This document shows positions 7,595-60,066 of a stretch of 64,000 bases of DNA, piece after piece (position 1 is the first letter of the stretch; the number at the start of each line of letters is the position of its first letter). The DNA lies in contig BPQB01000050.1 of NCBI GenBank assembly GCA_019973155.2, positions 124,001 to 188,000 of the forward strand, written 5' to 3'. This stretch comes from Phanerochaete sordida (taxonomy: Eukaryota; Basidiomycota; Agaricomycetes; Polyporales; Phanerochaetaceae). A program made the position numbers and the translations under genes. The notes below the pieces were generated by a model, which saw nothing but the letters and a program-made list of their open reading frames with translations, made no database searches and was not told where the DNA came from.

Positions 7595-8712
7595 ATGGCC
7601 GAGCTTCGCAGACGCGACGCGTCGCTCCGTGCACACAGCGACTCGCAGCAGACGCTCCTTACGGAAGAGTCCCCGCGCAAAGGTAGTGGCCGCGAACGAG
7701 TTGTGCCGCGGCGCATGCAGTACGGTGCGCACCCCCGCGCCCCTGCGCGCCCAGCCGTCATTGACGTGCGTACGCAGGCGACATCTCGACGGTGTACGAC
7801 ACGATGCACCGCGCGAACGCGGGCGACCCGCTGCAGCGCTTCCTGCTCGCGACGTCGGACAGCGCGGGGCCCCACCCAATACGTACGGCAGCGCGCAAGT
7901 TGCTTTACTACGTGCAGTACGCAACCGAGGTGCACGCGCGCATCGCGTGGGTCGTGCAAGGCGGCGCGTCGTACATGCGTTTGTGCGTCCTTCCTTCCTC
8001 GCTTTTTTCCCTCTTAGTCCGGCGCCGTCCTGCTGACGGTTTATGAACGATGGGTTTGCAGCGGCGACCCCTTCCGGCCAAAGACGTGGCTCACAAGGGC
8101 GGCAGATTGCGCCGCCGCGGCAGCGCTGGGGTGGGTCCTCACGAAGCAGCAGCGTGCGGTGGGTCCACGCTTCCTTTTCCCTCCCACGCATACCAGAGCT
8201 GACATCGCACCCGCTGACATTGCGCTTCGGCCTGACAGCGCCGCACGGAGTTCCGCACGAAGCTGCTCACAGCTGTGCACGCGCGCCTGGGCGACGGCGC
8301 GCGGCGCATGGTAGAGGTCGCGATCCTGATGACCGCGCCCGAGTGCCAGGGGCGTGGGTACGCGTCTGCCCTCGTGCGCGGCGCGACGGGGCTCGTGCGT
8401 CGTTTCTTAGCCCTCTGTCGGTGCCGCTGACGCGTTCTTTCTGGCACTACGTTTGGATGGTTGGCAGGCGGACGCACACGGCGTGGGCAGCTTCGTCGTG
8501 TCGAGCAACGTCGCGAACCGCGGGTTCTATCGCGCCTGCGGGTTTGAGATTGTCGAGACGTTATGGGTCGGAGATGAGCCGACGTGGGACGGCGAGCTGG
8601 TGCCCGTCGATCTGGTGAGTGTGCTGCTTGGCTTGTGTCGCGTGGGGCTGACAGCGTGCAGATGGCGAGAGAGCTCGAGCAGGGCAGGGCGAAGGAGGCG
8701 GAGGCAGAGTAG
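7595..8712 (+). CDS. GNAT-family N-acetyltransferase, GNAT-1
   Basis: Six exons (7595-7724, 7778-7982, 8062-8158, 8239-8394, 8468-8614, 8662-8712) give 261 aa. GNAT enzymes move an acetyl group from acetyl-CoA to an amine; the CoA pyrophosphate-binding motif here is CQGRGYA (Q/RxxGxG/A) near residue 180. It is followed by SSNVANRGFY, the alpha4/motif B region where the Tyr often acts as general acid. The N-terminal half carries the family signature RMQYGDISTVYDT...GDPLQRF and an alpha-helical stretch starting GDP. Exon 2 is exactly the sum (80+125) of two exons in most relatives, so an intron has been lost or was never gained. The last exon starts exactly at an ATG codon (MARELEQ). Its inverted near-copy is GNAT-6. 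The substrate is unknown. Confidence 0.85.
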
Positions 8713-9398
8713 TTGTCTCTGTTTGCTGTCGGTGATGGACACGTTAAAGCGCGCTGAGGTGAGCGGTCCTGTCTTTCTTCGTGCGTCTTTGCCGCAGGCT
8801 CACATACGCATCAAACCTCTCAGATCACCCTACGGCAGAGGACGTGCGAGAAGACCATTTCGCCGCGCTGCTCATGTCCGCAAAGACTATACAATGGATG
8901 CCGAATTTTGGCTCTCGTGCGCGCACTGAGCTCGGGCTACATCCTACGGTAAAAATAAAGCGGCGAAGGTGTCGTTTCAGGATCTGCAGCGCGTAAAATC
9001 AACCAATGTTAGGAGTACGGCCGCGACGACCCAACGTAAACCAGGCCTCCGACCTCGTGGGTTCTGTGAATGCTGCATCATCTTGCTTGTCGCTGATAGC
9101 TACCACAGCTTGACACTCCTAATCTTTCTCAGAGCATGTTCAGGTCGTCCGCCTTCAGAGCAGGGCCTATGCAGCGTCTCGGCCGAGGCCGACGGCAGCG
9201 GAGTCACTGACCTGCGAACTGACAAGTGCTCCACGTGCTCTCCCGGCATCGAGCTTCCCTCGTAACTCCGCCACATTCGACGTTCAAAAGGCGCGTGGTG
9301 GGCGAGTGCTCTCGTACCGCTGTTCAAGGATTTTCGCGGTGGATTCTCGGTCTCTGCCCCGTGCTGCTACGGACACGGTTCACAAGGATAGCGCTGTA
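8713..9398. other. Spacer between GNAT-1 and GNAT-2
   Basis: The portion from about 9225 is homologous to sequence upstream of GNAT-5 and probably contains the GNAT-2 promoter. The rest shows no gene and no recognisable remnant of the wax-synthase gene found at the matching place in the right arm. Confidence 0.5.
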
Positions 9399-10545
9399 AT
9401 GCAACACTCGCGTCATACCCCCGAGCAGATACCGCAGGGCCTCGGTGTCGGCAAGGATGTAGAGACGCTGCATCTCGCGACGCAGCAGTCGGTGGTGCCT
9501 CGCCCGATGCGATATCGTGAGTGACACCACAGACGGCCTATCGTACGTCACGCGATGACGCCGCTTCCAGGCGATATCCCCACAGTATACGACACCACGC
9601 GGCGGGCGAGCATCGACGACCCGCTGAACCGCTTTCTGAAGTACTATCCGGTCAGTACCGCCTCTGCCGACAGATTTACGCTGACTTGCACTGGACAGGA
9701 GAGCACGCGTCGTTTTGATATGCGCAGCCCAGCCCAGAAGGCTGTGATGTACCTTTCGTTTGTGAGCGAGGTTCGCGAGAGGGTAAGCTGGACCGCCAAC
9801 CGTGGCGAGTCCTACCTGCGCATGTAAGTCCTTTTTGATGACCATTCACGACGACTGACGGGCTATTTGTATCGCACTTAAGCGGCGACCCATTGCACGA
9901 AACCGGAATCTTAACGAAACTAATCGAGCGCGTCGTAGGGTTCCTCATGGGCCTCCTTCTGACCTCAGAGCAGAAGACGGTGCGTACGGGGCTATCACCG
10001 CGTCAGGCAACACCGCGGCTGACGTCCTTCCAGCGGCGCGCAGAGTGGGCGCGGAAGCTGGAAGAGGCCACGCGCGCAGCGCTCGGCGACGGCCCGACGC
10101 GCATGGTCGAGCTCACGAGCGTCGCGACCGCACCCGAGCGACAGGGGCACGGGTACGCGTCTACGCTCGTGCGGATCGTGACAGCCCTCGTGCGTGCTAC
10201 TTGCCTTCTCTACCACCGCTAATGCAGGCGCGACTCACTGCGTTCACCAGGCGGACGGGCGTGGCGTCGGCAGCTGGCTCGTCTCGAGCAACGTCGCGAA
10301 TCGCGGCTTCTATGCAACGTTCGGGTACACGGTCGCGCGGACGTTCGACCTTGGCGGCGAGGACCCGACGTGGACGCTGCCGCCGGTGCCGATTGACATC
10401 GTGAGCAGCGCTGGCATTCGCCGTTTACTTTGGGACTGACCTCGTCGCGTTGTAGATGGTGCGGGAGCCCGTGGGCGTAGGGGAGAAGCAGAAGGCACAT
10501 TCGTTAGCAGAGGCGCAGGGAAGCCTCGGTGGCGTATTGCTATGA
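9399..10545 (+). CDS. GNAT-family N-acetyltransferase, GNAT-2
   Basis: Seven exons (9399-9516, 9571-9650, 9699-9823, 9883-9979, 10034-10189, 10251-10400, 10456-10545) give 271 aa. The CoA loop is RQGHGYA, followed by SSNVANRGFY and the terminal segment PPVPIDI-MVREP. The start is uncertain: 9399 is the first ATG near the conserved block, but an in-frame ATG lies at 9306, and the ATG used in the duplicate GNAT-5 is not conserved here. The final exon is 30 codons, 12 longer than in GNAT-5. Similarity between the copies stops at the shared codons AHSL, and the extra tail is read from sequence beyond the duplication boundary. Intron 2 starts GTCAGT, as in GNAT-3 and GNAT-5. Confidence 0.85.
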
Positions 10546-10903
10546 ACGAAACCCATTGCGTCAAAGCACGTCGATAGCCGGTGCGGCGCACGGTACTGTA
10601 CAATCCCCCCTATCTCTCGTCGGACTCTGTACTCGATGTCAGAAGATACATCTTCCGCCATAGTACTTGCTACGCATCAGGCGGACAGGCTTGCTGCGCA
10701 CGTCCATATAGCATATGTAGCATTGTAACATGTCTGTGGAACCATGTGCTTACCGCTGCGCAGATCCTGCGCTTGGTTCCTGGATCAACGTCAACCGCAG
10801 CCCGCACCCTGTGTTAAAAAGGCCTTTCCACGCAGAGCATTCGGTGAGGTTTGTAGTGCTAAGCTCACCCACAGCGGGTGGCGGACATTCTCTGCAGATC
10901 GCT

Positions 10904-14268: not shown

Positions 14269-17073
14269 GCAACAAACATGAAGGTCGGGACCAGGAGCGA
14301 GAACGCACGTATGAAGCGCCGGCAAGAGCCCAAACCGAGACCCCGACCACCACGGACCTGCTCAGCGCTCAGAGACCGGCTGCGCTTCCACCAGCACCGG
14401 GCAACAAGGATGGTAAGTGGAAGTGACGCTTTCCTTGCCATCGCATACTCATCCGATTGCAATCACAGTCAGATGGCTGCTCACACAACTGGTGGCCGGT
14501 TGTCTCAAAGTACAGTAAATGTTTTGCGCGGCGCTAGGTGGACGAAATATTTGTGGATCAGCCCGTCTGCGAAGCTGCAAACGCTTGCATAACCAGTGTG
14601 TTGGATAAAATTCCATGTTCGTATTGGCTGTGGACTATAAGGTATGTCATCTGAAGAGGACTAGTTCATTGCCGCTTGATCCAAACTCGCCGTAGGTCTT
14701 GAACGAACCGCCGCTACCAAAACAGCCCCGGGTCAGCTGCGCCTCCATGGTCAGCAGGACCGTCTGTTAGTTTGGGTCATGTTCCTCACGGGCATTTAGC
14801 ACACAGACATGGGCGATAATTTTGCCAGGAGCCGTTCTGGTAGGAAGCGACACTGCCGGTGCGTCGCGATGACAGAGCTAACAGCCTCGACATCCTCAGG
14901 CTCATCAAATGTTGCGGCCAACGCACGCGAGGACTGTTGAGGATATTTATCCCTTCACTCAGGGACGCCCAACAACGCGACTCGGTCAGGTAACAGACAG
15001 GGAGGAAAGCTCGCGCAATTAGCATGCTGACTGGTATCCTTCCGACCACGGGGCAGATATCGGGTTGTGCACGGGATCAAGTGCCCGGTATACGCACAGG
15101 GGGCTCACGAGAAGGATGACGGCACAGTCCAGGAACCCTTCCGTGGACGTCAGCCCAATGGGCGTGGTCGCGAGCTGAATGGTGTGGCGCTCAAAAAGCG
15201 GACGTGCGGGCACGCATATTCTCTGCCGCATCACTGTCAGTCTGACGCGTTCTCCTCGAATGCAGACGACGAGCATGAGATTCTGTGTGCAGGTATCGCA
15301 TTTCGCGGAGTTCCGCGGTATGGAAAGCTGGGCCGTCGGGAGCAACACGGCGAACCGTGGGTCCTCGGCTTCATGCCTGCGAACCTGAGGACGTTCTGTT
15401 TCCGCCACGAGGACCCTGCTCGACGAATTGTATTACCCAGTAGACCACCTCCGAGCGTGAGCGGTACCGTTCCTCGCCGCGCCTCGCGTAGCTGATTTTA
15501 TCCCGCAGATGGCTGGAGTAGCCAGCGGCCCCGGCGTAAAATAGGCCGCGGAAGCAGAAGGGCTGTCAAGCTTCCCGCAGAGGTGCTTTTGTGGTACGGC
15601 TCTGCAATCGATTGCACGTACACAGGCCGCACGTCGGAGCGCGCCGCTCCCGCCGCCACCATACAGAGGCACCTCTCCTGCCATGCTTGCTTGCAGGCCT
15701 GAGCGAGGCTGCGCGGCGCTGCGCCCACCGCCGCGAGGCCAGGGCGGTATCGCGTACGCATCATGCGGGAGCAGGGACGCTCTTATGACCCAGCCGTTAT
15801 GCAGAGCGCAATGAATGCGAGCATATTCTGGGACCCAGAACCCAAGGTCTCCCCGGGACTCCGCTGCGGGGGCATTTCATCAGGGCCTTGGTGACAAATC
15901 GAAGGTGTTCGTAACGGCAAGCACCTGGCCCGAGAGACGGTACGGAGCCACAGTACTTGATCCTGACAGTGAAGCTAGTGAAGGGCCGACTGCAGGGTAG
16001 GACTGCGATCGGAGGCAGCATCAGCAAGGTTTCCTGTCCGCTCGGCCTCCTATAACGGGCACCGATAATCTTTTGTGGCGAGGCGGTCTGGGGTTTGTGC
16101 GGATATAGCACTCACCGCTGGCTGAGCCTCCGGCATTTTCTCTGCCTGTACTGAGCTGCAAATTTCTAACTTTCGACCCAGCTCTGCCGCCACTCCGCCG
16201 GCCAGCCCTGCAGCGGAGCCAGGCGGGTGGCGCGCTACTCGCGTCCCCCGGGCGCCACGCACGGCCTCAAGGCAAGCTAGCGGACGGGCACCAGGCGCGC
16301 AGACAAGCACGGGGCCCTGTGGCGAGGCTGTACACGCCACACGCCGCCCAGCGGGCACGACAGAACCTTCGCGGGGCTAGCGAGGCGGCTGGGCCGCGCA
16401 CGATTCGCTGCCCAGCCAGGGCGGGCCCGCGGCCGCAGGGCGCACGCGCTGCGCGGAGAACACGCGCACGACGGCGCGCGCTGCGCAGAAATGAAACCCG
16501 GCGCGGGCCCAGGCTGTGCCGCCGTAGCCGGCGGGAGCGGGTTCGCAGGTTCGCGGCGCGGCACTAGTGTGGTGGCCGGCGGCTTCGGCGGCCGCGGGAC
16601 GCTGCCCCATACACAGGCTCGCGAATCCCGAAGCCGAGTGTAGGGACACCGGCGCCGTCGATACGCATTCGAGAATTGGGTAGACTGGCCGATTTCGACC
16701 TCGCGCACGTCTGTGATCCCGCTATCATGCTGGTAGCACCTGGAGACAATCGTGTTGCTGCACGAAGGTGATCCTATCTATGAGACAGGGCGTGGTCTAA
16801 GACAAGAGATGCAGAGACAGCGCAAAGAAGAGACAGAACACCCGCCCATCTGACCGTCGCTGACTACGCGAGCGCGATTCGGGCCGTCGCGGAGCTTCAG
16901 GACTTTGCGCGGAAGCCCGGGATGGTCGCAGAAGCATTCGCCAAGGCTAGAATCGATCATAGGCCTATTTGAACCGGCATCGGTGTGGTGAGGACCAAAG
17001 GGGATGATATAGAGGGAGGGTCGTGGAGCCTCGCTCGTGCAACGGGCAAGCCGGAGAGCTGATTGCTACCAAC
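14269..17073. other. Intergenic with GNAT relic and a GC-rich tract
   Basis: Apart from the decayed GNAT exons near 15.3-15.5 kb and a GC-rich stretch at about 15.6-16.7 kb, no gene is recognised. The GC-rich stretch yields overlapping Arg/Ala/Pro-rich frames on both strands, as expected of composition alone. Confidence 0.45.
15281..15530 (+). pseudogene. GNAT relic, last two exons only
   Basis: A decayed copy of exon 6 lies at about 15293-15456. It is recognisable by SWAVGSNTANRG and HEDP, which correspond to SWLVSSNTANRGFY and DDP in intact copies, and it still has a donor (gtgagc at 15457) and a 52-nt intron. The next exon starts with ATG at 15509, as in intact family members, but runs into a stop after three more codons. 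The frame between the motifs is broken and the CoA-loop exon is not recognisable. It is the same strand as GNAT-1 to GNAT-3. Confidence 0.6.
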
Positions 17074-36765: not shown

Positions 36766-37858
36766 CTATACATTCTGAGAGGCCTGGAATGCGTATGCCG
36801 CCTTCTCTCTCACCGTGCCGTCCATTTCCTTTGGCTCCCTGACCATCTGCACACGCACGATCAGATCGATGTCGAGGCGAGAGAACGAGTGGGAGCGTAC
36901 GATGTCTATGGGCACCGGCGGAGCTTTCCACGCCGGATTGTCCGTACCAAGATAGAAGGTCGCAACCGTGGCGAAGCCAAGCGAATGGTAGAAGCCTCTG
37001 TTGACGGTGTTGCTCGATGCGAGCCACGTCGGGGCGCCTCTGGCGTCGGCCTGCAGACGGACAGCTGTGAGACGGTGGACTCAGCGGCAGAGGTAACGGG
37101 CGTACCGCATCCGTTGCGACGTGCACGAGGGCCGTCGCATAGCCGCGCCGCCGATATGCGGGTGCAGTGACGAGGCTGCTGACCTCGAACATCTCTGCGA
37201 GCCTGTCGCCAATGGTATCCTCAATAGCCTTCTCCATCTTGCCAACGAACTCCTTGCTACGCTGCACAGAATTGTATCAGGCTTGGAATGCTGACCTTCG
37301 AGAACTCTGGCCCCAAACCTTGTTCTGCTCTTTGTTCTGGTAGACCCCACGGATACCGCGCACGAGACTTCGATAAATTGGGCTGAAAAACTTGCTCAAT
37401 GGCCGCCTTTTCTGCGCTGGGTCGCTGCTGGATATGATAGGATAGCCAGGCCCAAAATATTCGTCAGAAATCCACTAAGTGAAGCTCCTCCACTCAATTT
37501 GACTCACACAATGATCACAGATTGTCCATGCTCAATAGTCCAGGCCGCTCTGTCCAAGATGCTGCGGTAGAACTGCATGCGATACAGCATACGCTGACCA
37601 GTCCGGTAGCGTTTGACATCTTTGTCATCAGCCTGAGGATACCGTGAGTCGGCCATGTCGAACTTAGGACGGGCACCCACCGTCCCTGCCTGTAAGTAAA
37701 ACTCCAAAGTGTCATCATCGACCGAGCTGTCCAGAGTGGCGCATGCAGTTGACACTTCCCCTATCAGAGCCCGTCAGCCAGGGAGATATCCGGACGCGAT
37801 TGCAGGGCGCACCGTATTGCAAAAGCTCTGGTTTCACGAACTCGTCCAGCATCGCCAT
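36766..37858 (-). CDS. GNAT-family N-acetyltransferase, GNAT-4
   Basis: Seven exons (37858-37813, 37760-37681, 37632-37508, 37427-37319, 37261-37106, 37050-36901, 36846-36766) give 248 aa, the shortest copy because exon 1 is only 15 codons (MAMLDEFVKPELLQY). It belongs with GNAT-9 and GNAT-10 in a subgroup whose exon 4 is 109 nt, not 97, and ends at a GTTTG-type donor. The CoA loop reads RRRGYA, which still satisfies R/QxxGxG/A but lacks the usual Gln. SSNTVNRGFY follows. The N-terminal region is the most divergent in the set: DDPLNRF of other copies is DDDTLEF here. The whole frame is open, so it looks functional. Confidence 0.82.
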
Positions 37859-39454
37859 GCAGGGCGGCCAGTCGCCCTTCTCCGTGCCTGTTGTCTCACA
37901 GCACAGCGTGTCCTGCGACGCGCGCCACGAGTGGCTCAATTGTCCGAGCGGCGGACTTAGGCTGAGTTTGGCCAAAGAGACAGCGGGACCCGCTTTGCGA
38001 ACCTGCATTCCGACCGCTGAGTCCCTCTAGCTCGTCGTGGAGGTCGCTGACGAACTGCTATCTGAGCGCAGCGGCCGCAGTCTCATCTTCCACACGGTGT
38101 GCTGTCGACAAACGCGCTGCGGTCATGTGCATGCGCGCCAGTACGCCGCCGCTGCCCGCTCGCCCGAGCCTAGGGTTAGGGCTACATTGGGGTTTGCTGG
38201 CAGGGGCTGGCCGCCTCTTCGTCCGCGGTCTCCCTCACAACCGAGTCATGCCCAAACGCGACGACGTTTAGCAAGCAGAGCGTGTCAGGTGTGCTATCTG
38301 GTTCCGCGTACGTTGCGCTGTCTCCGCCGCAGCTGCAGGCGGACCGCCCCTAGAGTCGATCGAGGGGCGCGATCAGGTCAATGTCGTGATCGCGACTCGG
38401 TTCGGAGGTGGTGGAGCCCGACGCTTGGCTCTTGCGCATTGCTTCCACCACTCTATTCTGACATACAACGCAGCGTTGGCGGCGCGCGCTGCCATCGATA
38501 GTGCCCTCCTAGCAGCAATCGCGGTGTGTTTCCGAAACGACCGGTGAGCGCATTCGTACTAGCTCCTGGGCGCCGCAGCTCCAAGTTGTGCGGAGCAAAA
38601 TTCGTATGTAGTGTTCATCGGTGCGCTCATGCTGCCCGCTCAATACCAATGCTCTCTCCGCGCTCGATCACGGATGGAGTACGTATACACAGCTCACTCC
38701 TGATCACAACCTGATCATAGGTGACCTGTCGCAGGTCGAGCTGCTGCTGGCCCTTGTGGGACTCTTCTCCATGTTTTGCTGGCAAAAATATGGCGTCCCA
38801 GCTCAGGTCCAGGAGGGGTCCATAGGAGCAATGTGATCATTGTCCCTGAACACACCTCCGATAGCAGTGCTACAAGGCGCTAGCTACGACTTATATCCAC
38901 GGACCGCCCATCACTTTTCAACGTTTGATGTAATACCAAGGCCGCAGCTGCATTTTTCGTACGCCACAGTGGTCCCTCAGGTCGACCAAGTACCCTTGTT
39001 TTGGGCCGCTTGGTCAGGCGACGCCAGCATCTCCTTTGGGCCTGTAAGGGCCGTGGTTCACTGCCTTTCGGCTCAAAAGTACAGCTTTACAGAGTTTATT
39101 TGCGCATTTTGCCTTTCACATAGTCTAGAATGACATTGCATGAGCCTGAGGCCTGCGGCAGTGCGGAAATCCTTGCGTAAAGTCGTCCCAACGCTAGAAC
39201 TAGCGAAGACGCGCTGAAAGGTATTCGGGGTCTCAATGACATCGTGATCAGGACCCGGGAAGTACAGTAGGGCCTGGGCAGGACGACATGGAACGCGCGA
39301 CGGCAGTTACTTCCGACTGAGCGGTACGAGTACCAGAAGCTAGCCTTCGAAGCTTCATTAATCATTATCCAACACCTAGGGTGCCAGAAAGCTTGCACAA
39401 TGGTATCCGGTTAAGTTACGTAGTGCCAAGAACGCTGTAGCTCTAGCCCAACTC
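37859..39454. other. Intergenic, no gene recognised
   Basis: About 1.6 kb lies between GNAT-4 and the end of GNAT-5. No ORF, repeat or RNA gene can be supported. The right arm of the duplication ends at about 39457. Confidence 0.5.
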
Positions 39455-40598
39455 TCATAACGAATGTGCTGCCTGCTTCTCAGCCACGCATATCGGCTCC
39501 CGCACCATCTACAGGACAAGGTCAGCCACAAGAGCATCGTATAATGTAGGCGCTGCTCACAATGTCAATCGGCACTGGCGGCAGCGTCCACGTCGGGTCC
39601 TCATCGCCAAGGTACAACGTCCGGGCAACCTTGTACCCGAACGCTGCATAGAAGCCGCGATTCGCGACGTTGCTCGAGACGAGCCAGCTGCCGACGCCAC
39701 GCGCGTCCGCCTGGTGCACGCAGTGAGTCGCGCCTGCATCTGACAGATACGGGCAGGAGCACGTACGAGCGCCGTTACGAGGCGCACGAGCGCAGACGCG
39801 TACCCACGCCCTTGCCGCTCAGGCGCCGTCGCGACGCTCGTGAGCTCAACCATGCGTGTAGCGTCGTCGCCGAGCGCGGCCTTCGTGGCCTCTTCCAGCT
39901 TCCGCGCCCACTCTGCGCGCCGCTAGGAGAGCGTCAGCTGCGGCGTCGCCTGGTGCGGTCATAGTCCCGCACACACCGTCTTTTGCTCTGAGGTCAGAAG
40001 GAGGCCCATGAGGAGCCCTACGACGCGCTCGATTAGTTTCGTTAAGATTCCGGTTTTGTGCGACGGGTCGCCGCTGGGTCGTGGTACACACATGCACATC
40101 AGTCGTCGTGAAGCCTCACGGAATCTCAGAAAGGACTTACATGCGCAGGTAGGACTCGCCACGGCCAATCGTCCAGCTAACCCTCTCGCGCACCTCGCCC
40201 GCAAACGAGAGATACATCAGAGCTCCCTGGGCAGCACCGTGGACATCGAAGCGCCGCGTACTATCCTGTTCGGCAAGTGTTAGGACAAGTCGCACGACGG
40301 AGGCGGCACTGACCGGATAGTACTTCAGGAAGCGGTTGAGTGGATCATCGACGCTGGCTCGCCGCGTGGTGTCGTAAACTGTGGAGATGTCTCCTGCAGA
40401 CAAGATTAGCATGCGGCATACCAGACGCTCTTTGTATTATGACGCACGGTATTGCATAGGGCGAGGCACCACGGTCTCCCATTTCGCGGGACGAAGAGCC
40501 TCTACATCCTCGCCCACGTCGAGTCCCTGCGGCATCTGCTCGGAGGTACGATCATCTGAGTGCTGGAGAGCAAAGCCGTCGCTGTTGAATGCACTCAT
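39455..40598 (-). CDS. GNAT-family N-acetyltransferase, GNAT-5
   Basis: Seven exons (40598-40448, 40393-40314, 40265-40141, 40073-39977, 39922-39767, 39710-39561, 39508-39455) give 270 aa. Exons 2-6 match GNAT-2 in length base for base, and most introns are within a few nt of it. The features are RASVDDPLNRF, WTIGRGESYLRM, CoA loop RQGRGYA and SSNVANRGFYAAFGY. The start ATG (MSAFNSDG) sits in a region that aligns with GNAT-2, where that ATG is not kept. The last exon ends AAHSL-stop, whereas GNAT-2 reads past this point. Confidence 0.87.
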
Positions 40599-41688
40599 AG
40601 GCGAGGACAGGGAAGACTTAGAGTCCGCTGTAAAAGATCTTGAATGGCGGTCTGAGAGCAACCCGCCACGATGAGCCCTTTCAACACCAAATACGGCGGA
40701 GTTAAGAGGTACGCTCGGCACCGGGGGAGCACATGTACGGGTACCTCTTGCTAGTTGGTAGAGTTCAATAAGTATGACTCCGCTGGCTTCCGTCTGCGTC
40801 GGACGAAAGGAAGGAATTCTGATCTCTCACCTGCACGCAAGAAGCCTGTATAAGAAACATCGTCAACGAGATGAACGCCTCTGTACGACAGCCACCATAA
40901 ATGTCTTCAGTCGAGGTGCTGCCCGTCGGACCCGCGCCGGTCGCCCATGCTACTGGCAGTTCGCCTCATGCCTGCCACGACCGACGTCGGCATTCATTGT
41001 GACAGTGTTGGAGTGTATTGATGCGAGTAACGCGCAGAGTCATGGAAGTAAAGGCTTTAATGCTCCAGCCTGGTGCTTTGAAGCTTTGAAGCATGAAGCG
41101 GACACACTAGAGAGTTTTCAACGAAAGAGTCAGTGTGGGACCCCGCAGTATTATGCCCGTAACCAGGACCCCAAGTACTCCCGAGCGCTCGACGTTAATC
41201 AAACGGACTTGAACTTTGTGGTTTCCAACTTCCCTACACTCTGCTCTAGCTAAGGTAGACTGGTTGGTAACTTAAACCATATCAGGTTTTTGTAAGAGAT
41301 ACGTCTGGCTACTGACCTCCCCTTCTAACATGTGAGTCTCAAGCGTATGAATCTGCCAAACAAATCACGCGCTTATTTACTTCGCATGAGAACGTCGCAG
41401 CCGAACTCTGGTGCAGGATCCTCGGGGAATTTGATAGAAAAGCTGGACCGCTCCGTGACAGGACATGGTCACAACGATGCGAAGCACGAGTGCACGACCA
41501 ATTTTATTGAAGTGCAGTTTGAATTGCCATGACGGTGGGCAGTTCAACCATATTAAACGACACCTAGACCTGGTCCATGCCTCTGAATATTCTCCTGCTA
41601 AGCACAATGATAACGCACATATCGATAAAGCCACAGCCTCTGTGCCAGCAACACTCCACCGCCCCTCGAATCGCCTACGAAGCTCGCT
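40599..41688. other. Divergent intergenic region between GNAT-5 and WS-A
   Basis: About 40599-40745 is shared with the GNAT-2 upstream region and may hold the promoter. The rest shows no feature that can be supported. Confidence 0.45.
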
Positions 41689-43104: not shown

Positions 43105-44195
43105 CTACTCGAACTTCCTCACCATCTTCACGACCATCAGCACTGTGTAAATCCATCGAGTTATACACACTTACCAGATCGACCGGCACGCGCTCTCCGT
43201 CCCACGTCGGCTCATCGCCGACCCAGAACGTCTCGACGATCTCGAACCCGCAGGCGCGGTAGAACCCGCGGTTCGCGACGTTGCTCGACACGACGAAGCT
43301 CGCTACGCCGTGTGCGTCCGCCTGCTTCCCCACCCAAGCGCAGTGCCAGAAAGAACGCGTCAGCGGCGCAAGGGAAAGGCTAGGAAAGACGCACGAGCCC
43401 CGTCGCGCCGCGCACGAGAGCAGACGCGTACCCACGCCCCTGGCACTCGGGCGCGGTCATCAGGATCGCGACCTCTACCATGCGCCGCGCGCCGTCGCCC
43501 AGGCGCGCGTGCACAGCTGTGAGCAGCTTCGTGCGGAACTCCGCGCGGCGCTGTCAGGCCGAAGCGCAATGCCAGCGGGTGCGATGTCAGCTCTGATATG
43601 CGTGGGAGGGAAAAGGAAGCGTGGACCCACCGCACGCTGCTGCTTCGTGAGGACCCACCCCAGCACCGCCGCCGCGGCGCGATCTGCCGCCCTTGTGAGC
43701 CACGTCTTTGGCTGGAAGGGGTCGCCACTGCAAACCCATCGTTAGTAGACTGTCAGCGGGACGGCGCCGGGCTAAGAGGGAAAAAAAGTGAGGAAGGAAG
43801 GACGCACAGGCGCATGTACGACGCGCCGCCTTGCACGACCCACGCGATGCGGGCGTACACCTCGGTCGCGTACTGCACATAATACAGCGCCTTGCGCGCT
43901 GCCGCACGTATGGGGTGGGGCCCCACGCTGTCCGGCGTCGCGAGCAGGAAGCGCTGCAGCGGGTCGCCCGCGTTTGCGCGGTGCATGGTGTCGTACACTG
44001 TCAGGATGTCGCCTGCGCCCGCACGTCAGTGCAGGTTGGGGACGTGAAGATGCGGGAGTGCGCACCGTACTGCATGCGCCGCGGCACGGCTCGGTCGCGG
44101 CCACTATCTTTGCGCGGGGGCTCCTCCGTAAGGAGCGTCTCCTGGGAGTCGCTGTGTGCACCGAGGGGTGCGTCGCGTCTGCGAAGCTCGGCCAT
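43105..44195 (-). CDS. GNAT-family N-acetyltransferase, GNAT-6
   Basis: Six exons (44195-44066, 44012-43808, 43727-43631, 43550-43395, 43321-43175, 43125-43105) give 251 aa. It is the near-identical inverted partner of GNAT-1, sharing the fused 205-nt exon 2, the 147-nt exon 5 (one codon shorter than other copies) and almost the same intron sizes (53, 80, 80, 73, 49 against 53, 79, 80, 73, 47). CoA loop CQGRGYA and SSNVANRGFYRACGF are intact. The C-terminus differs: the last exon is MVRKFE, ten residues shorter than GNAT-1. Its 3' end is 120 nt from the end of WS-A (convergent). Confidence 0.87.
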
Positions 44196-45328
44196 GGACG
44201 TCGATGCAAGGTTACGGATCTACGAGGCGTGATTCCGCTGGGCGGTCGCGTCGACGCGGGCGTGAGATATCAAGGTCCTTTCCGCGCTAGGTTTGAGCTG
44301 CGGCACCGCCGCGCAGCCTGGACCACATGACGCGGTGTTCTGACGCGACGTTCTATTGCATGCGCAAGAAGCGTTATCTTTAGGAAAGCTGAACGCAATG
44401 GCTGCGTTGCATGCACTTGGCGGCGCTGCGTGCGGCTGCGGTGCTGCGGGGACGTGCCCGCTGTTCATGTCAGGAGCGGTCGATACGCTAGAGCAGAGTT
44501 CTCGCAGCTTGCGTCGTGTGATCTAGCTCTGTAGTCCTTCATCCAAATAACAGGTATTCGAAGCGTTCTGCGAGGATTCTCGCCGTCCCAGGCTCAAACA
44601 GGCTTCGGCGCAGAGGCCAAGAGCTGAAAACCATATGGTAAACTATGACTGGTGTAAAAATTAATTTTATCGCTCACCTGTGCTCAATGAATCAATGTCA
44701 TATCCCACTGCCCATAAAGAACATCCACGGCTACCATAAGGCAGGTAAGACCAAGGTAAGGTGATAGTGCTTCTGTCTGAAGTTATGAACGCAGCACGCT
44801 GGCCCGTCAGTCCGGGACCCCGCAACGTTTGGTTGTCACCAGGACCCCGGGGACCCGCGAGCGCTAGTATGGATGGCCTGAACTTTTCCCGCTGATTGCC
44901 TGCAAGAAGTGGACACCTACGTTTTGCTCAAACTCAGCTGAATCTGTCCTTATAAATTACGTTGAGGAAAGTAATCCTGTACAATATCGGAGCCTCAGAT
45001 CGCTCAATTACGTGTCAAGCTGCATCACCCCCATGCTACTAATCTGCGTTCCGCTTTGGTAGACCCATAACCAAAACCCAGGAAGACTCCTGAAAACGTA
45101 GTCTTCCATCCAGGGCATATTGTATGAGAGCCTTTATGCAGCAAAGACATGCGTTAACGGGCACTCGGAAATTCAAGGCCTTTCACGGAGGCAATTCCGA
45201 GTCAGGCGGAATAGCTGACATTCACTCACGCCTAAGCCAAGGCAGAGGCTATATAATGTCAGCGCAATCCCTGATTTTCCATTGCACCCGTACCCCAGGG
45301 CTTACGGTAACTCTGCTCATCCTCGTCC
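44196..45328. other. Divergent region between GNAT-6 and WS-B
   Basis: This region matches the non-coding DNA at about 6.6-7.59 kb upstream of GNAT-1, reversed, and presumably carries the GNAT-6 promoter. No coding sequence was recognised. It is less GC-rich than its surroundings. Confidence 0.55.
45250..45256 (+). promoter_or_regulatory. TATA-like box of WS-B
   Basis: The sequence tatataa lies 73 bases before the WS-B start codon. It falls at the limit of the duplicated block; the left arm has only ctatacc at the matching site. Confidence 0.4.
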
Positions 45329-46609
45329 ATGTACGTCGTCCTTCTAAATTCCATGATCGCCGTCGCGCTCGCAACGCACCCGCGCCCCCGCATTGCCACG
45401 CGCCTCGCCACCGTCACGGCCCTCACCGCCGCCGTCCTCGTCTTTGTGCAGCGCCACACCGGCAGCCACACCATGTCCGCCTACCTCTCCGGCATCGAAA
45501 CGGGCAACGCGTGCCTCCGCGCGGCGCTCCTGCTCCTCGCCACCGACCCGGTGCGCGCGTGCCGGCACGAGGCGCAGACGGAGGAGCCCGCCCGGATGTC
45601 GTGCGCGCGCCGGCTCGCGTGGACGCTGCGTCTGACGTGCGCGTATCGCGGCGTCGGGTGGAGCTGCCAGGTGCGTCCGTTCAACGCGCTGTGGCCGACG
45701 GCGTCCGGTGTCGCTCACGTCCGCTGCCAAGATCGCGCACCTGCCCCCGCGACCCACGTCCACTCGCAGCGGCTTCGTCGCCAGCCGGCTCTTCCGTATC
45801 GCACTGCACGCCCTGTGTTTGGACGTTGTGCACTCGTACATGAGCGTCGACCCCCTCTTCTCCGGCACCCGCGCCGCCGCGGACGCCCAGCGGCAGCGGC
45901 GCCCGGCGCTCTTCGTCTTCGCCAGCGCGCTCGCGCTGGCGCACTTCTACGCTACCTTCAACATCGCGTACGACGCCACCGCCCTCGCCGCGGTCGCCAC
46001 GCGGTGCAGCGCGCCCGCCGCGTGGCCCGCCGCCTTCGGGCGCTGGGCGGACGCGTACACCGTCCGGCGGTTCTGGGGGTGCGTCCGCGTTGCCATGCCA
46101 TGCCGCGCTCCGCGCTGACGACGCCCAGGCGCACCTGGCACCAGCAGCTCCGCTGGCTGCTCGGCGGCCTCGGCGCGGCGCTCGCGCGCGCACTCGGATG
46201 CGCGCGCGGCTCGTGGGCGTCCGCGCACGTGCAGCTCGGCGCGGCGTTCGCGCTCAGCGGCGCGGCGCACGCGTGCGGCGACGCCGTGCTCGCGCTGCCC
46301 GGCGCGTCTGCGCGCTTCTTCCTCGCGCAGGCCGCCGTCATCACGCTCGAGGACGCGCTCGTCGCGGGCGGGGCGCGCTTGGGCGTCCCGGACGCGCCGG
46401 CCGTGAGGGTGTGCGGGTTCGTGTGGACGGCGGCGTGGATGCTGTGGAGTAACGCGTGGCTCGGGCTCGCGGGGCCGCAGCTGAGGGCGGGGTATCTCGG
46501 CGAGCAGGTGGCGACGGTGTCGGTCGTGCGTCCGGTGCTCCGATATGTGGCGGCTGCCACGGGCATGGATGTTCTGAAGTCGATTGAAACTTTAATCCAA
46601 GGGGCGTAG
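45329..46609 (+). CDS. Wax-synthase-like membrane-bound O-acyltransferase, WS-B
   Basis: Three exons (45329-45670, 45732-46078, 46129-46609) encode 389 aa. Exons 2 and 3 are 347 and 481 nt, exactly as in WS-A, and both introns sit at identical places, so this is a tandem paralogue. Signature parts are AFGRWADAYTVRRFWG, the RTWHQQLRW histidine motif and FALSGAAHACGDAVL. The N-terminus is eight codons shorter than in WS-A, and codons are more GC-rich. Note that the frame happens to stay open through both introns, which could mislead automatic annotation into an unspliced ORF. The substrate is unknown. Confidence 0.85.
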   Translation: MYVVLLNSMIAVALATHPRPRIATRLATVTALTAAVLVFVQRHTGSHTMSAYLSGIETGNACLRAALLLLATDPVRACRHEAQTEEPARMSCARRLAWTLRLTCAYRGVGWSCQVRPFNALWPTASGVAHVRCQDRAPAPATHVHSQRLRRQPALPYRTARPVFGRCALVHERRPPLLRHPRRRGRPAAAAPGALRLRQRARAGALLRYLQHRVRRHRPRRGRHAVQRARRVARRLRALGGRVHRPAVLGVRPRCHAMPRSALTTPRRTWHQQLRWLLGGLGAALARALGCARGSWASAHVQLGAAFALSGAAHACGDAVLALPGASARFFLAQAAVITLEDALVAGGARLGVPDAPAVRVCGFVWTAAWMLWSNAWLGLAGPQLRAGYLGEQVATVSVVRPVLRYVAAATGMDVLKSIETLIQGA

Positions 46610-48197: not shown

Positions 48198-49326
48198 CTA
48201 CCACTTCCCCTCCCCACCCCGCACCTCGCGCACCATCTACACCGCCCCATCAGCCCCGCCCACCCACACACACTCAGCTCGGAAGGAACTCACGATGTCG
48301 ATCGGCACCGGCGCGCGCGTCCACGTCGCGTCGTCCGCACCCAGGTAAAACGTGCGCACGCCGCGGAAGCCGCACGCGCCGTAGAAGCCGCGGTTCGCGG
48401 CGTTGCTCGAGACGAGCCAGCTGCGCGTGCTGCGTGCGTCGGCCTGCGCGGCGCGCCACCGTCGGTCAGCACACCGTCGCGGGACGCAAGGACGAGGAGG
48501 GGGACGCACGAGGTCGGTCGCGACGCGCACGAGCGCGCGCGCGTACCCGCGCCCCTGGCACGCGGGCGCGGTCGCGAGGCCGTCGACGAGCAGCATGTCT
48601 GCGACGGCGTCGCCGAGCGCGTCTGCGATCGCGGCGTTGGCCGCGCGCACGAACGCGTCGTATCTCTACGTATATCAGCGCGAGCACACGTCAGCGCGGG
48701 AGGCGCGAAAGAAGAAGGAGGGAGACGCACCGCGCGCTGCATGCGCGTCAGCGTGCGCAGCGTGAGCCCGGCCACGAGGCGCGCGACGGCGCGCGCGAGC
48801 GCGTCCGGCGCGTGCAGGGGGTCGCCGCTGTGCTGCGTGTGAGACGGGGCGCGAGCGGAGGGGGCGCGGCGCACAGGCGGAGGTAGGACGCGCCGTGCGC
48901 GACGGTCCAGAGCGCGCCGCTGCGCACGTCGTCTGCGGCCTGCGCGTAGAGCAGCGCCGTGCGCGCCGCGCGCGTGCGTGCGTTCGGGGGCGCGCTGTCC
49001 TGCGGTTTGCAGCGATCAGAGGGGTGTGTGCGTGGGCGGGAGGAGGCGCGCACGGGGGTGTCCTTGAGGAAGCGGTTGAGCGGGTCGGCGGCGAAGGCGG
49101 CGAGGGTGGTCGACACTGCGCGCGGGATGTCGCCTGCGTGACGTCAGCTGCGCGCGGGGCGCGCGGGCGAGGGCGGCGTACGGTACTGCATGCGCTGGGG
49201 CACGGCGAGCTTGAGCTCTGCGGCGGGGCCGGGGCAGCCGGCGGCGCTCTTGGTGGCGCGCGGCGCGTGGGCCGGGTCGTCGGGGGCGGCCAGCGGCGCG
49301 GACAGGCAGAGGAATGGCGCAGCCAT
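48198..49326 (-). CDS. GNAT-family N-acetyltransferase, GNAT-7
   Basis: Seven exons (49326-49182, 49133-49054, 48999-48875, 48827-48731, 48665-48510, 48443-48294, 48236-48198) give 263 aa. Exons 2-6 follow the 80/125/97/156/150 template exactly despite large sequence divergence and very GC-rich codons. Visible are FAADPLNRFLKDTP, WTVAHGASYLRL, CoA loop CQGRGYA and SSNAANRGFYGACGF. Introns are also GC-rich and 47-66 nt. The final exon encodes MVREVRGGEGKW. It forms a tandem pair with GNAT-8. Confidence 0.84.
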
Positions 49327-49925
49327 GGTGGGGTAGCGTAAGCTGAGCTGGGCAGGCGGCCTGCCGTGCGCTGCGGGCTGCGCGTCGCTGATAAGGTTCT
49401 GTCCCCGCAATCGCGGCCATGTGCGCTGCCTGTGCGTCATCTGCCCGGCTGCGATGTCGCCATGGCGTCATGCTTACAAGCCGGTACGCTGAGAGGGCGG
49501 TAGCAGGCTCGCCTCAGCGCGGCCCTCCGTCGTGCCAGCTCAAGTTCAAGGTTCGGCTCGGCACGCGCACGACGGCCGGACGCCACCACGCCAGCGCCCA
49601 TCAGCCGCTCGCGTGGGCCCGCTCCCTGCCTTCGTCCCCTGGTTACTCACGCGAACAAGCTCGGCAAACGTCGCATGGACCGCATACAATGCAGTTCTAT
49701 GTGATTTTCGTTCTAAAATCACCCCGAGTCGAAGATGGGTCGTCCTGGCAAAGAACACGCAGCGTGCACCCCGGACGGCACAGCGTCCAAGCTGCAGCGA
49801 CGACGCCGAGAACGTGTATCTCCGCAGCTCGTCGTCCGCGCTACAGGGCACCCGAGCGCCCAACCCAGCCAGGCCCCCGCCATTTCCATATGTACGCGTA
49901 AGCTCGAAGCCGTCCCCTCCACCAC
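49327..49925. other. Spacer between GNAT-7 and GNAT-8
   Basis: Presumed GNAT-7 promoter and GNAT-8 3' flank; nothing else recognised. Confidence 0.5.
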
Positions 49926-51111
49926 CTACTCGCCCCGCCCCCGCGGCTCGCGCACCATCTGCAGCCCCCGCATCAGCACACGCCCATACCCGCCAAATCC
50001 GCACTCACGATCTCGATCGGCACCGGCGGCTTCCCCCACGCCGCGTCCGCCTCGCCGATCACAAACGTGCGCACGACCTCGAACCCGCGCGCGCGGTAGA
50101 ACGCGCGGTTGCCGACGTTGCTCGACACGAGCCAGCACGCCGCGCCGCGCGCGTCCGCCTGTCGCCCGCCCATCAACAACCATCAGCCCGTCGTTCCTCG
50201 CACGGCAAAAGCAAAGGAGGGGAGACGCACGAGATCTGCGACGACGCGCACGAGCGCACTCGCGTACCCGCGCCCCTGCCACGCCGGGTGCGTCGCGAGC
50301 CCGCCGACGCTCAGCATCTCCTGCATGCGCGCCCCGAGCGCGCCCTGCAGCGCCGCGCCGCGCTTCGTCTTGTACTCTGTCCTGCGCTGCGCCCTGTCAG
50401 CCTTTGTCAAGGGGCGCGCGGGAGACATACCTTGAGCTGCACGCCCGTAAACGTCCACGCGAGCGCCGCGGCGAGCGCGCGGTCGAGCGTGCGCACGAGG
50501 GGCCCGGGCGTGCGTTGCGGGTCACCTCTACAAGTGCACGCACGCACGCGTCAGCCGACGTGGAAACAAAAGAAGAGGGCGGAGAGAGCACGCACAGCCG
50601 CATCCACGACGCCCCGCCGTGCACAGTCCAGATCGCGCCCTGGTAGGCATCGCGCGCGTACATCGCGTACATCAGCGCGGCGCGCAGCGCCCCGCGGAGT
50701 GTCAACCCCTGCTTCGTGCCCTGTTACACGTCGGTGCGCGCGTTAGCCTGGTAACGTTCCAGAGGAAAGCAGGAGGGGAAGCAGGAGAGGAAGGAGGGGG
50801 AGCAGAGGGAGGGACGTACGGCGCTGTCCTTGATGTACAGATTCATCGGGTCGCCGCGCGTCGCGTGCTTCGCCGTCGTCAGTGCCGTCGGGACGTTGCC
50901 TGCGCTGCGTCAGCACGCTCGGGCAGGAACAGACGGGGAGAGACGGACGGTAGCGCAGGAGCTGCGGCGCGGGCGTTGTGCGCTGCGCGGTACGCTGCTC
51001 GGCGTCCTTGCACGGTTCTCCGTGTCCCGCGAGCATTGTCTCAGCAGACGAGTCTGCTGGCTGGGCCCGTCGTTCGCGCAGTCCGTCCATATCGCCGCCG
51101 TACGAAGACAT
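49926..51111 (-). CDS. GNAT-family N-acetyltransferase, GNAT-8
   Basis: Seven exons (51111-50949, 50899-50820, 50720-50596, 50527-50431, 50386-50231, 50158-50009, 49958-49926) give 267 aa. Intron 2 is 99 nt, about twice its usual length; an internal acceptor ending at accag would run into a stop codon, so the distal acceptor is chosen, and it restores the 125-nt exon. Intron 4 is only 44 nt. The CoA loop is WQGRGYA, followed by SSNVGNRAFY: Ala replaces the Gly normally before Phe-Tyr (NRGFY). The last exon encodes MVREPRGRGE. It lies just upstream of GNAT-7 on the same strand. Confidence 0.83.
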
Positions 51112-56579: not shown

Positions 56580-57526
56580 GAAATGCGCGAGAATGCGTGC
56601 TCGTCGTCGGCGACGGCGAGGACGATGGTGGGGGTAAGGTTGTTCGAGCGGTTCCGGGGTCTTGGTTCGAATTTGAGGGACTTCTGACACTGCCTTTTTG
56701 GGTGCCGCTTACCGACGCCGATCCTTTTATGCGGCTGCTCTCGTTCTGCAGCCTCTGTACACACGGAACGGCGGGCTTTTATCTGCTTCTCACAAAGACA
56801 ATGTATACTGCGAGCTACAGCTCAGGATGCCAGCTGCGTCGATGCGTCGTCTGTTCGGGTAGTTCTGCAATGCCTCCCCGGCGGTATGACCCATACGCGC
56901 GCATCTCTTGCTTGGGCAGACTCGAACTGGCCAGTGAGCCTGCGGTCACACGAATCCACAGGCAGACTCCTGAGGATGCTGATGCGCTCCTTGTGAACCC
57001 TCGCCCCTCATCGCATCTACCGTGAGCAGGTTTAGATCGCGCCCTACGCGACCAGGTTGGTGGTAGGACACTGCTCGCGATTCCGATACTCCACTCTCCC
57101 TCGGAGATTCATACACAGCATCCGCTACAGGCAATGACAGATTGCCATGCGCGATACACGAGGCCCGACAGAAGCTGCCGGGCTATCCTGGCTTCTGATA
57201 ATCGCCCGTGTCCTGGGAGACGAGCGCGTCTCTAGCTCTGACTCGTGGAATATATCTTCAAACGAAAAAAGGCTACACAAGCTTGGCGTGTATTTAGCTG
57301 GCGCAAACATATCAGCTTGAGCACGGCATTAAGAAGTCACAGTAGTTCTCAAACGATTTTCGACGCGGATAAACGAATGCTTGAGGTGACGATAGCTACG
57401 ATGACAGAGCAATTGAGAAGTACGGTCTGCGTGTATGTTTATGGATGCGGGGTCGAACATGATTGCCTTAGCAGGAAGCGACCCGCGTGCTCTAAAGGAG
57501 CTGTCGGGGTTAACGACGATCTTCTC
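56580..57526. other. Intergenic, no gene recognised
   Basis: The interval lies upstream of the OTU gene. A TTCGAGT-like element near 56920 (reverse strand) was examined as a tRNA arm and rejected. No ORF can be supported. Confidence 0.5.
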
Positions 57527-58663
57527 CTAGGTCGAGATATCTTTCGGGTCTCTGACCATCTGTGTGGACGTTTTTAGGGATAGTGCTTTGCAGACAGCAG
57601 TTCGAGCTACTGACGAGATCAATGGACACAGGCGCGCCAGCCCAGGACGTGTTTTCCGCGCCGACGTAAAAGGTATGCAGGAACTTGAAGCCTAGTGACT
57701 GATAGAAGTGTCGATTTGCGGGATGGCTAGATGTCAGCTCGAGCTGGACACCCCGCGCATCTGCCTGTAGGTTGCATCAGTTATCGAGATCCGTCCTCGA
57801 TACGTGTAAAAATACAGGTTGAAACGAACCAAGGCGGCGGCGAGCTGCACAAGCGCAGTAGCATATCCGCGATGCTGACATTCGGGAGCGGTGGCAAGAT
57901 GGTCGATCTCGAGAATGTGAGACATACTCTCGCCCAGGAATGCTTCGAAGGTGTTTTGCATCCCGCTTATGAGCTCCGCGGTGCGCTGTGGCCAGGTCAA
58001 TCTCAAGCTCGATGGCGTCCACGATGCAAGAAACAAACCTTCTGCTGCTCTGCGGATAGGCAATACCAATTGATGAGTCGGACGATCCATGTGACAAACC
58101 GGCTAAGGATCTTGTTCAAGGGACGTTCTTCTAACGTAGGGTCGGCTCTTCATGCTTCTTAGACAACGGCTTACTAGCCCCGTAAAGCAGCACTCACAGA
58201 AGCATGATGGAGTCGCCATGATTGACCGTCCACGCAGTCCCGCTATAGACGGCATGACAATACTGTACAAACAATTTTACCTTCCTCCCGACTTGCCACC
58301 GCGCCCTGTACTTATAGTCGTCCTGATTTTATGCTATATCACAGTCGCAAACGTCCCACGAAGACGGCGACTTACAGGAGTGTTGTACAGATATAGGTTC
58401 AGCGGGTCATGCGCTATGCTTCGCATGATGGTGTCGTATACCCTCGGCAAGTCCCCTGCAAATACGCGCGTGAGTTGTCTGCCATACAGTAACGAAGCGA
58501 TGTTATACGGACTGTACTACATTGGTCTCGGCGTAACCATCTCTTGTGAGGTAGACGAGGGGTTCTCATGATAGTCTTCATCCGCCTTGATATCGAAGGA
58601 ATTCGTCTGGGCTTGGGGACCGTTGGCTCTGTCGCGTAGTGGAGCGAGGGGGGGAGGGGTCAT
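57527..58663 (-). pseudogene. GNAT-9, full-length copy interrupted by one in-frame TAG
   Basis: All seven exons are recognisable with good splice sites: 58663-58513, 58455-58376, 58322-58198, 58147-58039, 57985-57830, 57764-57615, 57559-57527 (would-be 267 aa). Lengths follow the subgroup template 80/125/109/156/150. The only defect is a TAG at 58519-58517, at the end of exon 1, where relatives have CAG (Gln) in the RPMQY motif. This is a single C-to-T change. Downstream, DHLATAPECQHRGYA and NRHFYQSLGF are intact, although His replaces Gly in NRGFY. Intron 4 starts GTTTGT. It could be a very recent pseudogene, an allele, or a base-calling error; no other in-frame ATG restores the N-terminus. 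Confidence 0.75.
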
Positions 58664-58937
58664 AGTCACTTCCAGCCGATGGGTTCATGGAGGAGGGCTA
58701 CGTCCTCCCGGAGGGTGGCTCTTTATCGACTTGGACGCGGCCGCATGACGAGATTAACGTAACGCTCTCCGCCAATCGTTACCGCTCATTGATATCATCA
58801 GGACGAGAAGACAAGACGTGCGACTTGAACTTGCGGCAGCACTTGTGTGCGGGATCACATCGTCCAGCTTCAAATTCGGCAAGGGTCGGCGTACCGTAAT
58901 GGTCCCTGAAGAAGAACAATTTGCATTGCGGCAGCTA

Positions 58938-60066
58938 CTATAGCGCAGGAACGCCTGTCTTCTCGTTCCACATGTCGCCCATGCTCTTTGGGTGCCTGAC
59001 CATCTGCGATGTTAAGAGTTAGACGGATGTGACAAAGTCTGGGAAGGTGACGACAGAACGCACAATATCTACCGGCACCGGCGCGGCGGTCCACGTCGGA
59101 TTGCCATCCCCGACGTGGAAAGTTGTCACGACTTCAAAGCCCAAGGAATGATAGAAGCCCCGGTTCGCCGTGTTGCTAGACACGAGCCAACTCGGGACAC
59201 CCCGTGCATCTGCCTACGGAACTGAGCGCCAGGTCTAGAAAACAGTGCGTGATGTCGCTACACGTACAAGGTTTGTGGCTACACGCACCAGGGACGACGC
59301 ATAGCCTCGTCCCTGGCATTCCGGAGAGGTCGCAAGGCTGCCGACTTCTATCATGTATGCCGTCCGCTCGCCCAACGTATCGCGGATCGCCTTTCTCATC
59401 TTTGTGCCGAATTCGGCACTGCGCTGTGGTTGCCTGGTCAGGTGCAAACGCTGACGAGAGTGCAGGCCACAAACCAGGCGCTGTTCCTTCGAATACGTTA
59501 GCTGATTGAGTCCTCGAACAAGCCGGTTGTGAATGGCGTTGATGATCTTATCAACTGCATCCTCCTGGCGCGCGGGGTCGCCGCTGAGCAAACCCGTCTG
59601 AGCTAGAACCAGAAGTCCGACTGTTATGTAAATGTCACTCACAGATTCATGATAGATTCTCCATGGTTGATGGTCCATTCGGACTTCTCGCGGACAACCT
59701 TGCAAAATTGGAGATGAAACGTGACCTTACGGCCAAGCTTCCAGCGTAGGCTGTCCTGGTGATGATCCTCAGGTTCAGGTAAGTCAAAACCCATCGATAC
59801 AGTCACGAGAGTCTCACTGGTGTGCCATTCAGGTATTGGTCCAGAGGGTCGGGCGCCAGAGTCAGCTCCGCGGTCTTGCAAGCTTTCGCCACGTCACCTG
59901 TGGCGGCACCGTCAGCTCCGTAACGGTCGTCGACGATTGACATACGGTATTGCATGTGCCTCGGATAGCTGATTTCGTGCACTTTGTTACCTCCAAATGC
60001 ACGCGGCGTACCATGGAAGACGGTAGAGGCAGTGTCGCGCGCATCCCAATTGTGAACTTCCACCAT
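58938..60066 (-). CDS. GNAT-family N-acetyltransferase, GNAT-10
   Basis: Seven exons (60066-59946, 59897-59818, 59767-59643, 59583-59475, 59423-59268, 59213-59064, 59003-58938) give 268 aa. The 109-nt exon 4 with a GTTTGT donor places it with GNAT-4 and GNAT-9. For exon 3 the acceptor ending ctgag is chosen over one 12 nt downstream because it restores the 125-nt length. Visible features: APDPLDQYLNGTP, WTINHGESIMN, CoA loop CQGRGYA, SSNTANRGFYHSLGF, and a 22-codon last exon starting MVRHPKSMGD. The start codon (MVEVHNW) gives the exon-1 phase shared by all copies. It is in tandem with GNAT-9. Confidence 0.85.

What the first reader, a model, noticed from the sequence alone, without database searches (positions are those of the whole stretch)
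7595..60066. Ten full-length GNAT acetyltransferase genes plus a relic in one 64-kb window
Seen directly: ten copies share one exon-length template (exons 2-6 of 80, 125, 97 or 109, 156 and 150 nt) although protein and intron sequences have diverged widely. GNAT family knowledge explains the CoA loop (Q/RxxGxG/A) and NRGFY region. The inference is a locally expanded, mostly maintained family under repeated duplication. The combination of an N-terminal RPMQY-x-D...DPLN module with a C-terminal GNAT core is not one I can name, and its substrate is unknown. A dispersed array among conserved single-copy genes such as VPS36 and the OTU gene suggests a lineage-specific acetylation system.
Basis: partly seen in the sequence, partly recalled or inferred. 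Interest (0 to 1): 0.75.

Follow-up and report, generated by a model that had tools for sequence, protein, structure and literature searches.

The report
Fungal cluster of ten acetyltransferase genes
A wood-rotting fungus carries ten related, mostly intact acetyltransferase genes in one stretch of DNA, copied locally and apparently kept by selection; two of them, modelled by computer, resemble the bacterial enzyme that disarms the antibiotic puromycin, but what the fungal versions act on is unknown.

The parts
7595..8712 (+). copy c1, 261 aa, intact; exons 7595-7724, 7778-7982 (205 nt, intron 2 missing), 8062-8158, 8239-8394, 8468-8614, 8662-8712
9399..10545 (+). copy c2, 271 aa, intact; equals public protein P0002
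10904..12025 (+). copy c3, 265 aa, intact; public protein P0003 starts at the last Met of exon 1
15293..15373 (+). relic: fragment of the exon that carries SNTANRG, similarity ends after it; best match c3, 61% over 23 residues, E 1e-4 within the window
36766..38008 (-). copy c4, 298 aa, intact; exon 4 is 109 nt; equals public protein P0004
39455..40598 (-). copy c5, 270 aa, intact; equals public protein P0001; inverted duplicate of c2
43105..44195 (-). copy c6, 251 aa, intact; fused 205-nt exon; inverted duplicate of c1
48198..49326 (-). copy c7, 263 aa, intact; GC3 0.95
49926..51111 (-). copy c8, 267 aa, intact; GC3 0.89
57527..58663 (-). copy c9, template complete but with an in-frame TAG at 58519-58517 in exon 1; probable young pseudogene (or a sequence error)
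58938..60066 (-). copy c10, 264 aa, intact; exon 3 is 113 nt, exon 4 is 109 nt
6624..8623 (+). arm of the inverted duplication: upstream DNA plus most of c1; 82.5% identical to 43166-45194 on the other strand
43166..45194 (-). other arm of the inverted duplication: most of c6 plus upstream DNA
9232..10512 (+). second, colinear block of the inverted duplication, holds c2; 77% identical to 39452-40735 on the other strand
39452..40735 (-). second, colinear block of the inverted duplication, holds c5

Best explanation
This is a local gene-family expansion in Phanerochaete sordida. A gene encoding a puromycin-N-acetyltransferase-like (PAC-fold) GNAT enzyme was copied repeatedly within about 52 kb, partly by inverted segmental duplication, and nine copies remain intact under purifying selection. 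Shown here: copy number, gene structure, duplication geometry, constraint on the two youngest pairs, and the predicted fold of two copies. Inferred: each copy is an acetyl-CoA-dependent enzyme that passes the acetyl group straight to an amine of a small molecule, with the NRGFY tyrosine as general acid. Also inferred: the helical hairpin and the helix before strand 2, the most variable parts of the folded domain, set which amine is accepted, so that the cluster works as a set of related phase-II detoxifying (or metabolite-tailoring) N-acetyltransferases.
Against: No expression data. The acceptor is unknown, and the detoxification role rests on fold and general knowledge of such families. Variation in the hairpin could be relaxed constraint rather than specialisation; the N-terminal tail varies even more (23% identity). 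Nei-Gojobori dN/dS is high in some old GC-rich pairs (c7/c8 1.01, c1/c8 0.89, c6/c8 0.86, c1/c7 0.75, c6/c7 0.74). The codon model with base frequencies does not show this (0.031 for c7, c8, c1), but those branches are saturated and neither value is reliable. c1/c6 contains a probable gene-conversion tract, so its rates are a mixture. c9 is broken, so not every copy is kept. Only 2 of 10 copies were modelled.
Confidence: 0.6

Rival explanations
1. The copies are protein or peptide N-acetyltransferases (regulatory or N-terminal acetylation) rather than small-molecule enzymes.
For: The GNAT fold is shared with RimI, Ard1 and Naa enzymes, which also appear in the match lists. The c5 and c4 proteins have weak NCBIfam matches to rimI, far below cut-off (16.4 and 18.8 bits against 86.4).
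Confidence: 0.15
2. The locus is part of a secondary-metabolite gene cluster in which the GNATs, with the neighbouring MBOAT acyltransferase genes, decorate one product.
For: An MBOAT_2 gene at about 45329-46606 (34.9 bits, cut-off 25) and a 73.5% similar stretch at 41858-42984 (sub-cut-off match) sit on either side of c6. A GH78-like gene and a STE12-like factor lie nearby.
Against: No backbone enzyme (polyketide or peptide synthase, terpene cyclase) among the 30 ORFs scanned; many smaller ORFs of the window were not scanned. Housekeeping-type genes (OTU, RRM, a weak VPS36 match) are interspersed.
Confidence: 0.12
3. A by-product of a duplication-prone locus: copies multiply by recombination, have no distinct role, and are on the way to decay.
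For: One fragment and one copy with a stop. A probable gene-conversion tract between c1 and c6. Some old pairs have high Nei-Gojobori dN/dS.
Against: Nine of ten copies are open with all splice sites. The young pairs show constraint against the intron yardstick, and omega = 1 is rejected in all five sets tested.
Confidence: 0.13

Closest known systems
Puromycin N-acetyltransferase (PAC, Streptomyces alboniger; PDB 7k09, 7k0a)
   Different: 17-21% identity in the structural alignments. None of the ten copies keeps the residues aligned to PAC Y30, T77 or E161. N-terminal tail of 40-55 residues with very low model confidence. Eukaryotic, intron-containing, multi-copy.
PsYK624_001330 (P0008, contig C1) and relatives in P. 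carnosa, Irpex lacteus and Cytidiella melzeri
   Same: Same family; exon lengths 80/122/109/156/150 nearly equal to the cluster's. The single P0008 sequence aligns to PAC over its residues 21-218.
   Different: Outside the cluster; the C1 group is the sister of the cluster group in the protein tree (support 100).
Arylamine N-acetyltransferases (NAT, PF00797)
   Same: Would perform the same type of reaction, acetyl-CoA to an amine, in xenobiotic metabolism (recalled; PMC3815920 passages, list them among phase-II enzymes).
   Different: Unrelated fold with cysteine chemistry (recalled; PMC7933286 passage on the catalytic triad). No PF00797 match found in this genome.
Insect arylalkylamine / dopamine / polyamine N-acetyltransferases
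   Different: Lower Z; 9-17% identity.

Membership tests
GNAT superfamily | Acetyltransf_1 (PF00583) profile above Pfam cut-off | tested here: met
   7 of 7 copies scanned (c1, c2, c4, c5, c7, c8, c10), 33-38 bits against 20.7. c3 by precomputed Pfam of P0003. c6 and c9 not scanned.
GNAT superfamily | Q/R-x-x-G-x-G/A pyrophosphate loop | tested here: met
10 of 10 copies with A in the last place (c4 as RRRGYA, c9 as QHRGYA).
Puromycin N-acetyltransferase (PAC) | PAC overall fold over the full chain | tested here: met
Puromycin N-acetyltransferase (PAC) | Alpha-helical hairpin between beta 3 and beta 4 (PMC7933286 passages) | tested here: met
   (c5): helices 128-144 and 147-173 between strands 115-120 and 176-183. 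(c4): helices 143-163 and 166-186, plus a short one at 188-193, between strands 130-135 and 195-202.
Puromycin N-acetyltransferase (PAC) | General-acid Tyr (PAC Y171) | tested here: met
   Tyr in 10 of 10 copies. The P. carnosa relative P0007 has Phe there.
Puromycin N-acetyltransferase (PAC) | PAC active-site residues Y30, T77 and E161 (T77 and E161 described as puromycin-binding) | tested here: not met
   aligned residues are D in 10 of 10; G, S or A; V, A or T. Sequence alignment only; the Y30 and T77 part is weak (stretch E 0.28).
Puromycin N-acetyltransferase (PAC) | Acetylates puromycin | not testable with these tools
   Needs an enzyme assay.
Arylamine N-acetyltransferase (NAT) | PF00797 domain | tested here: not met
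   Not among the Pfam hits (E <= 0.001) of the 7 copies scanned.
Transposon-borne gene family | Flanking sequence repeated widely in the genome | tested here: not met
   the two flank segments tested were found twice each, only inside this locus. Flanks of the other copies were not tested.

The most novel reading that the evidence does not exclude
A eukaryotic branch of the PAC fold, with the helical hairpin thought unique to the bacterial antibiotic-inactivating enzyme, has been expanded in this white-rot fungus as a diversified amine-acetylating arsenal. It would serve, in a genome where no classical arylamine N-acetyltransferase was detected, against toxic amines from wood, from pollutants or from competing bacteria.
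Probability: 0.2. Interest if true: 0.6.

Novelty: new member of a known kind. Interest (0 to 1): 0.35.

Why it matters
It gives a concrete, testable candidate set for N-acetylation of amines by white-rot fungi. [quoted passage not shown] It also suggests that the hairpin described as unique to the bacterial puromycin enzyme is present in a fungal family, which may help decide how such enzymes choose acceptors. As a genome feature, a local multigene family with one broken copy and one fragment is ordinary.

Tried and rejected
Rejected: a fused unknown N-terminal module (the stretch is the first strand and helices of one GNAT domain). Rejected: transposon-driven spread, on the two flank segments tested. 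Rejected: alleles of a heterozygous assembly (the duplicates are in inverted orientation on one contig with about 17-23% divergence). The published assembly is short-read only (PMC8530024, whole text read), so the c9 stop and the local order are not independently checked.

Led nowhere or weak: NCBIfam gave only sub-cut-off matches. Protein-database searches returned 3, 7 and 8 hits; they need shared exact words and one search scored a capped candidate set, so absence of P. chrysosporium or other fungi means nothing. The Pfam family search of the genome listed no hit in this window at all, because it reads exon by exon; PF13508 listed two. Spliced models of the C34 relative were good only over its last exons. 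The codon-model trio with c7 and c8 is saturated. Paper searches for GNAT expansions in Phanerochaete, white-rot fungi or Agaricomycetes and for fungal PAC homologues showed nothing on this family in the listings; the lists were capped (15 of 174, 15 of 18, 10 of 120 shown). Searches looked for the genome paper and the PAC structure paper. Passages seen: PMC3815920, PMC13340093, PMC4964394, PMC7933286, PMC9890813 (says R. solani, another basidiomycete, encodes many GNAT proteins), PMC9100321, PMC10474215. Whole text: PMC8530024.

Full report
Identity of the window. The c5 protein is 100% identical to a public 'GNAT family N-acetyltransferase [Phanerochaete sordida]' on a 237,632-base contig. 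The window is bases 124001-188000 of contig C50 (237,632 bases) of a 40.8-Mb genome. This fits the YK-624 draft genome, a 41.2-Mb short-read assembly (PMC8530024, whole text).

The copies. tblastn with c2 finds ten copies and one fragment. Spliced alignment with free exon lengths gives the models, refined for starts, ends and the c6 and c9 splice sites. c1-c3 are on the plus strand and c4-c10 on the minus strand. All 58 modelled introns are GT-AG, 44-99 nt. c9 carries TAG in exon 1 where the other nine copies have a sense codon. Public proteins agree with c2, c4 and c5 exactly and with c3 except for its start; none was retrieved for the other six.

Genome-wide distribution. Searches of the whole genome with c5, c10 and the C1 protein find relatives only here, on C1 and on C34 (E <= 0.001); they score only the best candidates. 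A tblastn of all ten proteins against 50 kb of neighbouring contig (104-124 kb and 188-218 kb) finds nothing at E 0.05, although PF13508 marks another, evidently more distant, GNAT domain at C50:201058-201174. The C1 gene has exons of 80, 122, 109, 156 and 150 nt, so the template is probably older than the cluster, and the 109-nt form of exon 4 (c4, c9, c10, C1) is probably ancestral (inference). Other GNAT genes also occur in groups in this genome (C11, C17, C127), so grouping is not peculiar to this family.

How the copies arose. A self-comparison shows two colinear inverted blocks: 6624-8623 against 45194-43166 (82.5%) and 9232-10512 against 40735-39452 (77%). They include non-coding flank, and the two flank segments tested (6624-7594 and 38770-39238) occur twice in the genome, both times here. 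One duplication of a c1-c2 unit is the simplest reading, but divergence differs between the blocks (upstream DNA 22% for c1/c6, 34% for c2/c5; dS 0.17 and 0.38), so either two events or later gene conversion is also involved. A protein tree of 20 sequences puts c1, c2, c3, c5, c6, c7 and c8 together (support 86, moderate). c4 pairs with P0006, a protein of source 'lgn' whose origin I do not know (100). Two P. carnosa proteins fall among c4, c9 and c10, with weak support (36-66). The C1 group is the sister of all these (100). So part of the expansion may predate the split from P. carnosa and part may be specific to the P. sordida line; sampling is too thin to settle it.

Selection. Nei-Gojobori: c1/c6 dS 0.17, dN 0.05; c2/c5 dS 0.38, dN 0.10; intron divergence 0.20 and 0.38. 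Thus dS behaves like neutral divergence and dN is about a quarter of it. Results against: several old GC-rich pairs give 0.74-1.01. One-ratio codon models with F3X4 frequencies give omega 0.142 (all ten), and 0.105, 0.172, 0.031 and 0.103 for four trios, each rejecting omega = 1 (2dlnL 118 to 606). The old branches are saturated, so the young pairs carry the argument. One caution: c1/c6 has a nearly identical tract over intron 3 and the 156-nt exon (2/80 and 2/156 differences), next to 7/79 in intron 2 and 49/172 in introns 1, 4 and 5. Introns 2+3 against 1+4+5 give Fisher p 3e-8 and the exon against the other exons 4e-4, both groupings chosen after seeing the data. Gene conversion is the likely cause and lowers the mean divergence of this pair.

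Mechanism. In PAC, Y171 is very likely the general acid; the aligned residue is Tyr in 10 of 10 copies, though Phe in one P. carnosa relative (P0007). The offset between chain index and paper numbering was taken as two because the letters at Y30, T77, A142, L145, E161 and Y171 then all agree in the alignment. The residues aligned to Y30, T77 and E161 are D, G/S/A and V/A/T in the copies. So the chemistry is expected to be shared and the acceptor different. Identity between the nine intact copies is 67% in the CoA-binding segment, 54-61% in the other core strands, 43% in the first strand and helices, 33% in the hairpin, 30% in helix 85-104 and 23% in the N-terminal tail. This fits acceptor diversification, but relaxed constraint would look similar.

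Biological role. [quoted passage not shown] A PF00797 search of this genome found none (3 of 14 control genomes gave a match; intron-split genes could be missed). N-acetylation of aromatic amines by fungi is reported (passages of PMC9100321 and PMC10474215). A GNAT detoxification set is therefore a reasonable hypothesis, not a result.

Verdict. The array is real, concentrated in this locus and mostly intact, but it is a new member of a known kind: a local expansion of PAC-fold GNAT enzymes. I saw no paper on this family in the listings (an open-access library only, some lists capped).

Noticed in passing
8159-8394 (c1) and 43630-43395 (c6): Intron 3 and the 156-nt exon are almost identical between c1 and c6 (2/80 and 2/156 differences), intron 2 differs by 9%, introns 1, 4 and 5 by 28%; probably gene conversion between inverted copies 35 kb apart.
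   Followed up: partly
7490-7569: No difference in 79 aligned bases just upstream of c1 against c6, in a flank that otherwise differs by about a quarter; a conserved promoter or another conversion tract.
   Followed up: no
41858-42984 and 45474-46609: A second, direct duplication: an MBOAT acyltransferase stretch and a 73.5% identical copy flank c6.
   Followed up: no
5757-6213 and 38770-39238: A segment without an evident long ORF, duplicated in inverted orientation, but at the opposite end of the duplicated block from where a simple inversion would put it; the order looks permuted. Only two copies found in the genome.
   Followed up: partly
48198-51111: c7 and c8 have higher GC3 (0.95 and 0.89) than the other copies (0.65-0.86).
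   Followed up: no
G000:C50:201058-201174: Another GNAT domain (PF13508, 28 bits) about 13 kb beyond the window on the same contig; not matched by the ten proteins at E 0.05.
   Followed up: partly
whole genome: No arylamine N-acetyltransferase (PF00797) match found in this fungal genome.
   Followed up: partly
L050 (contig C34): A divergent relative of the family; only its last exons (156 and 153 nt) could be modelled with confidence.
   Followed up: partly
C11, C17, C127: Other GNAT genes also occur in groups in this genome.
   Followed up: no
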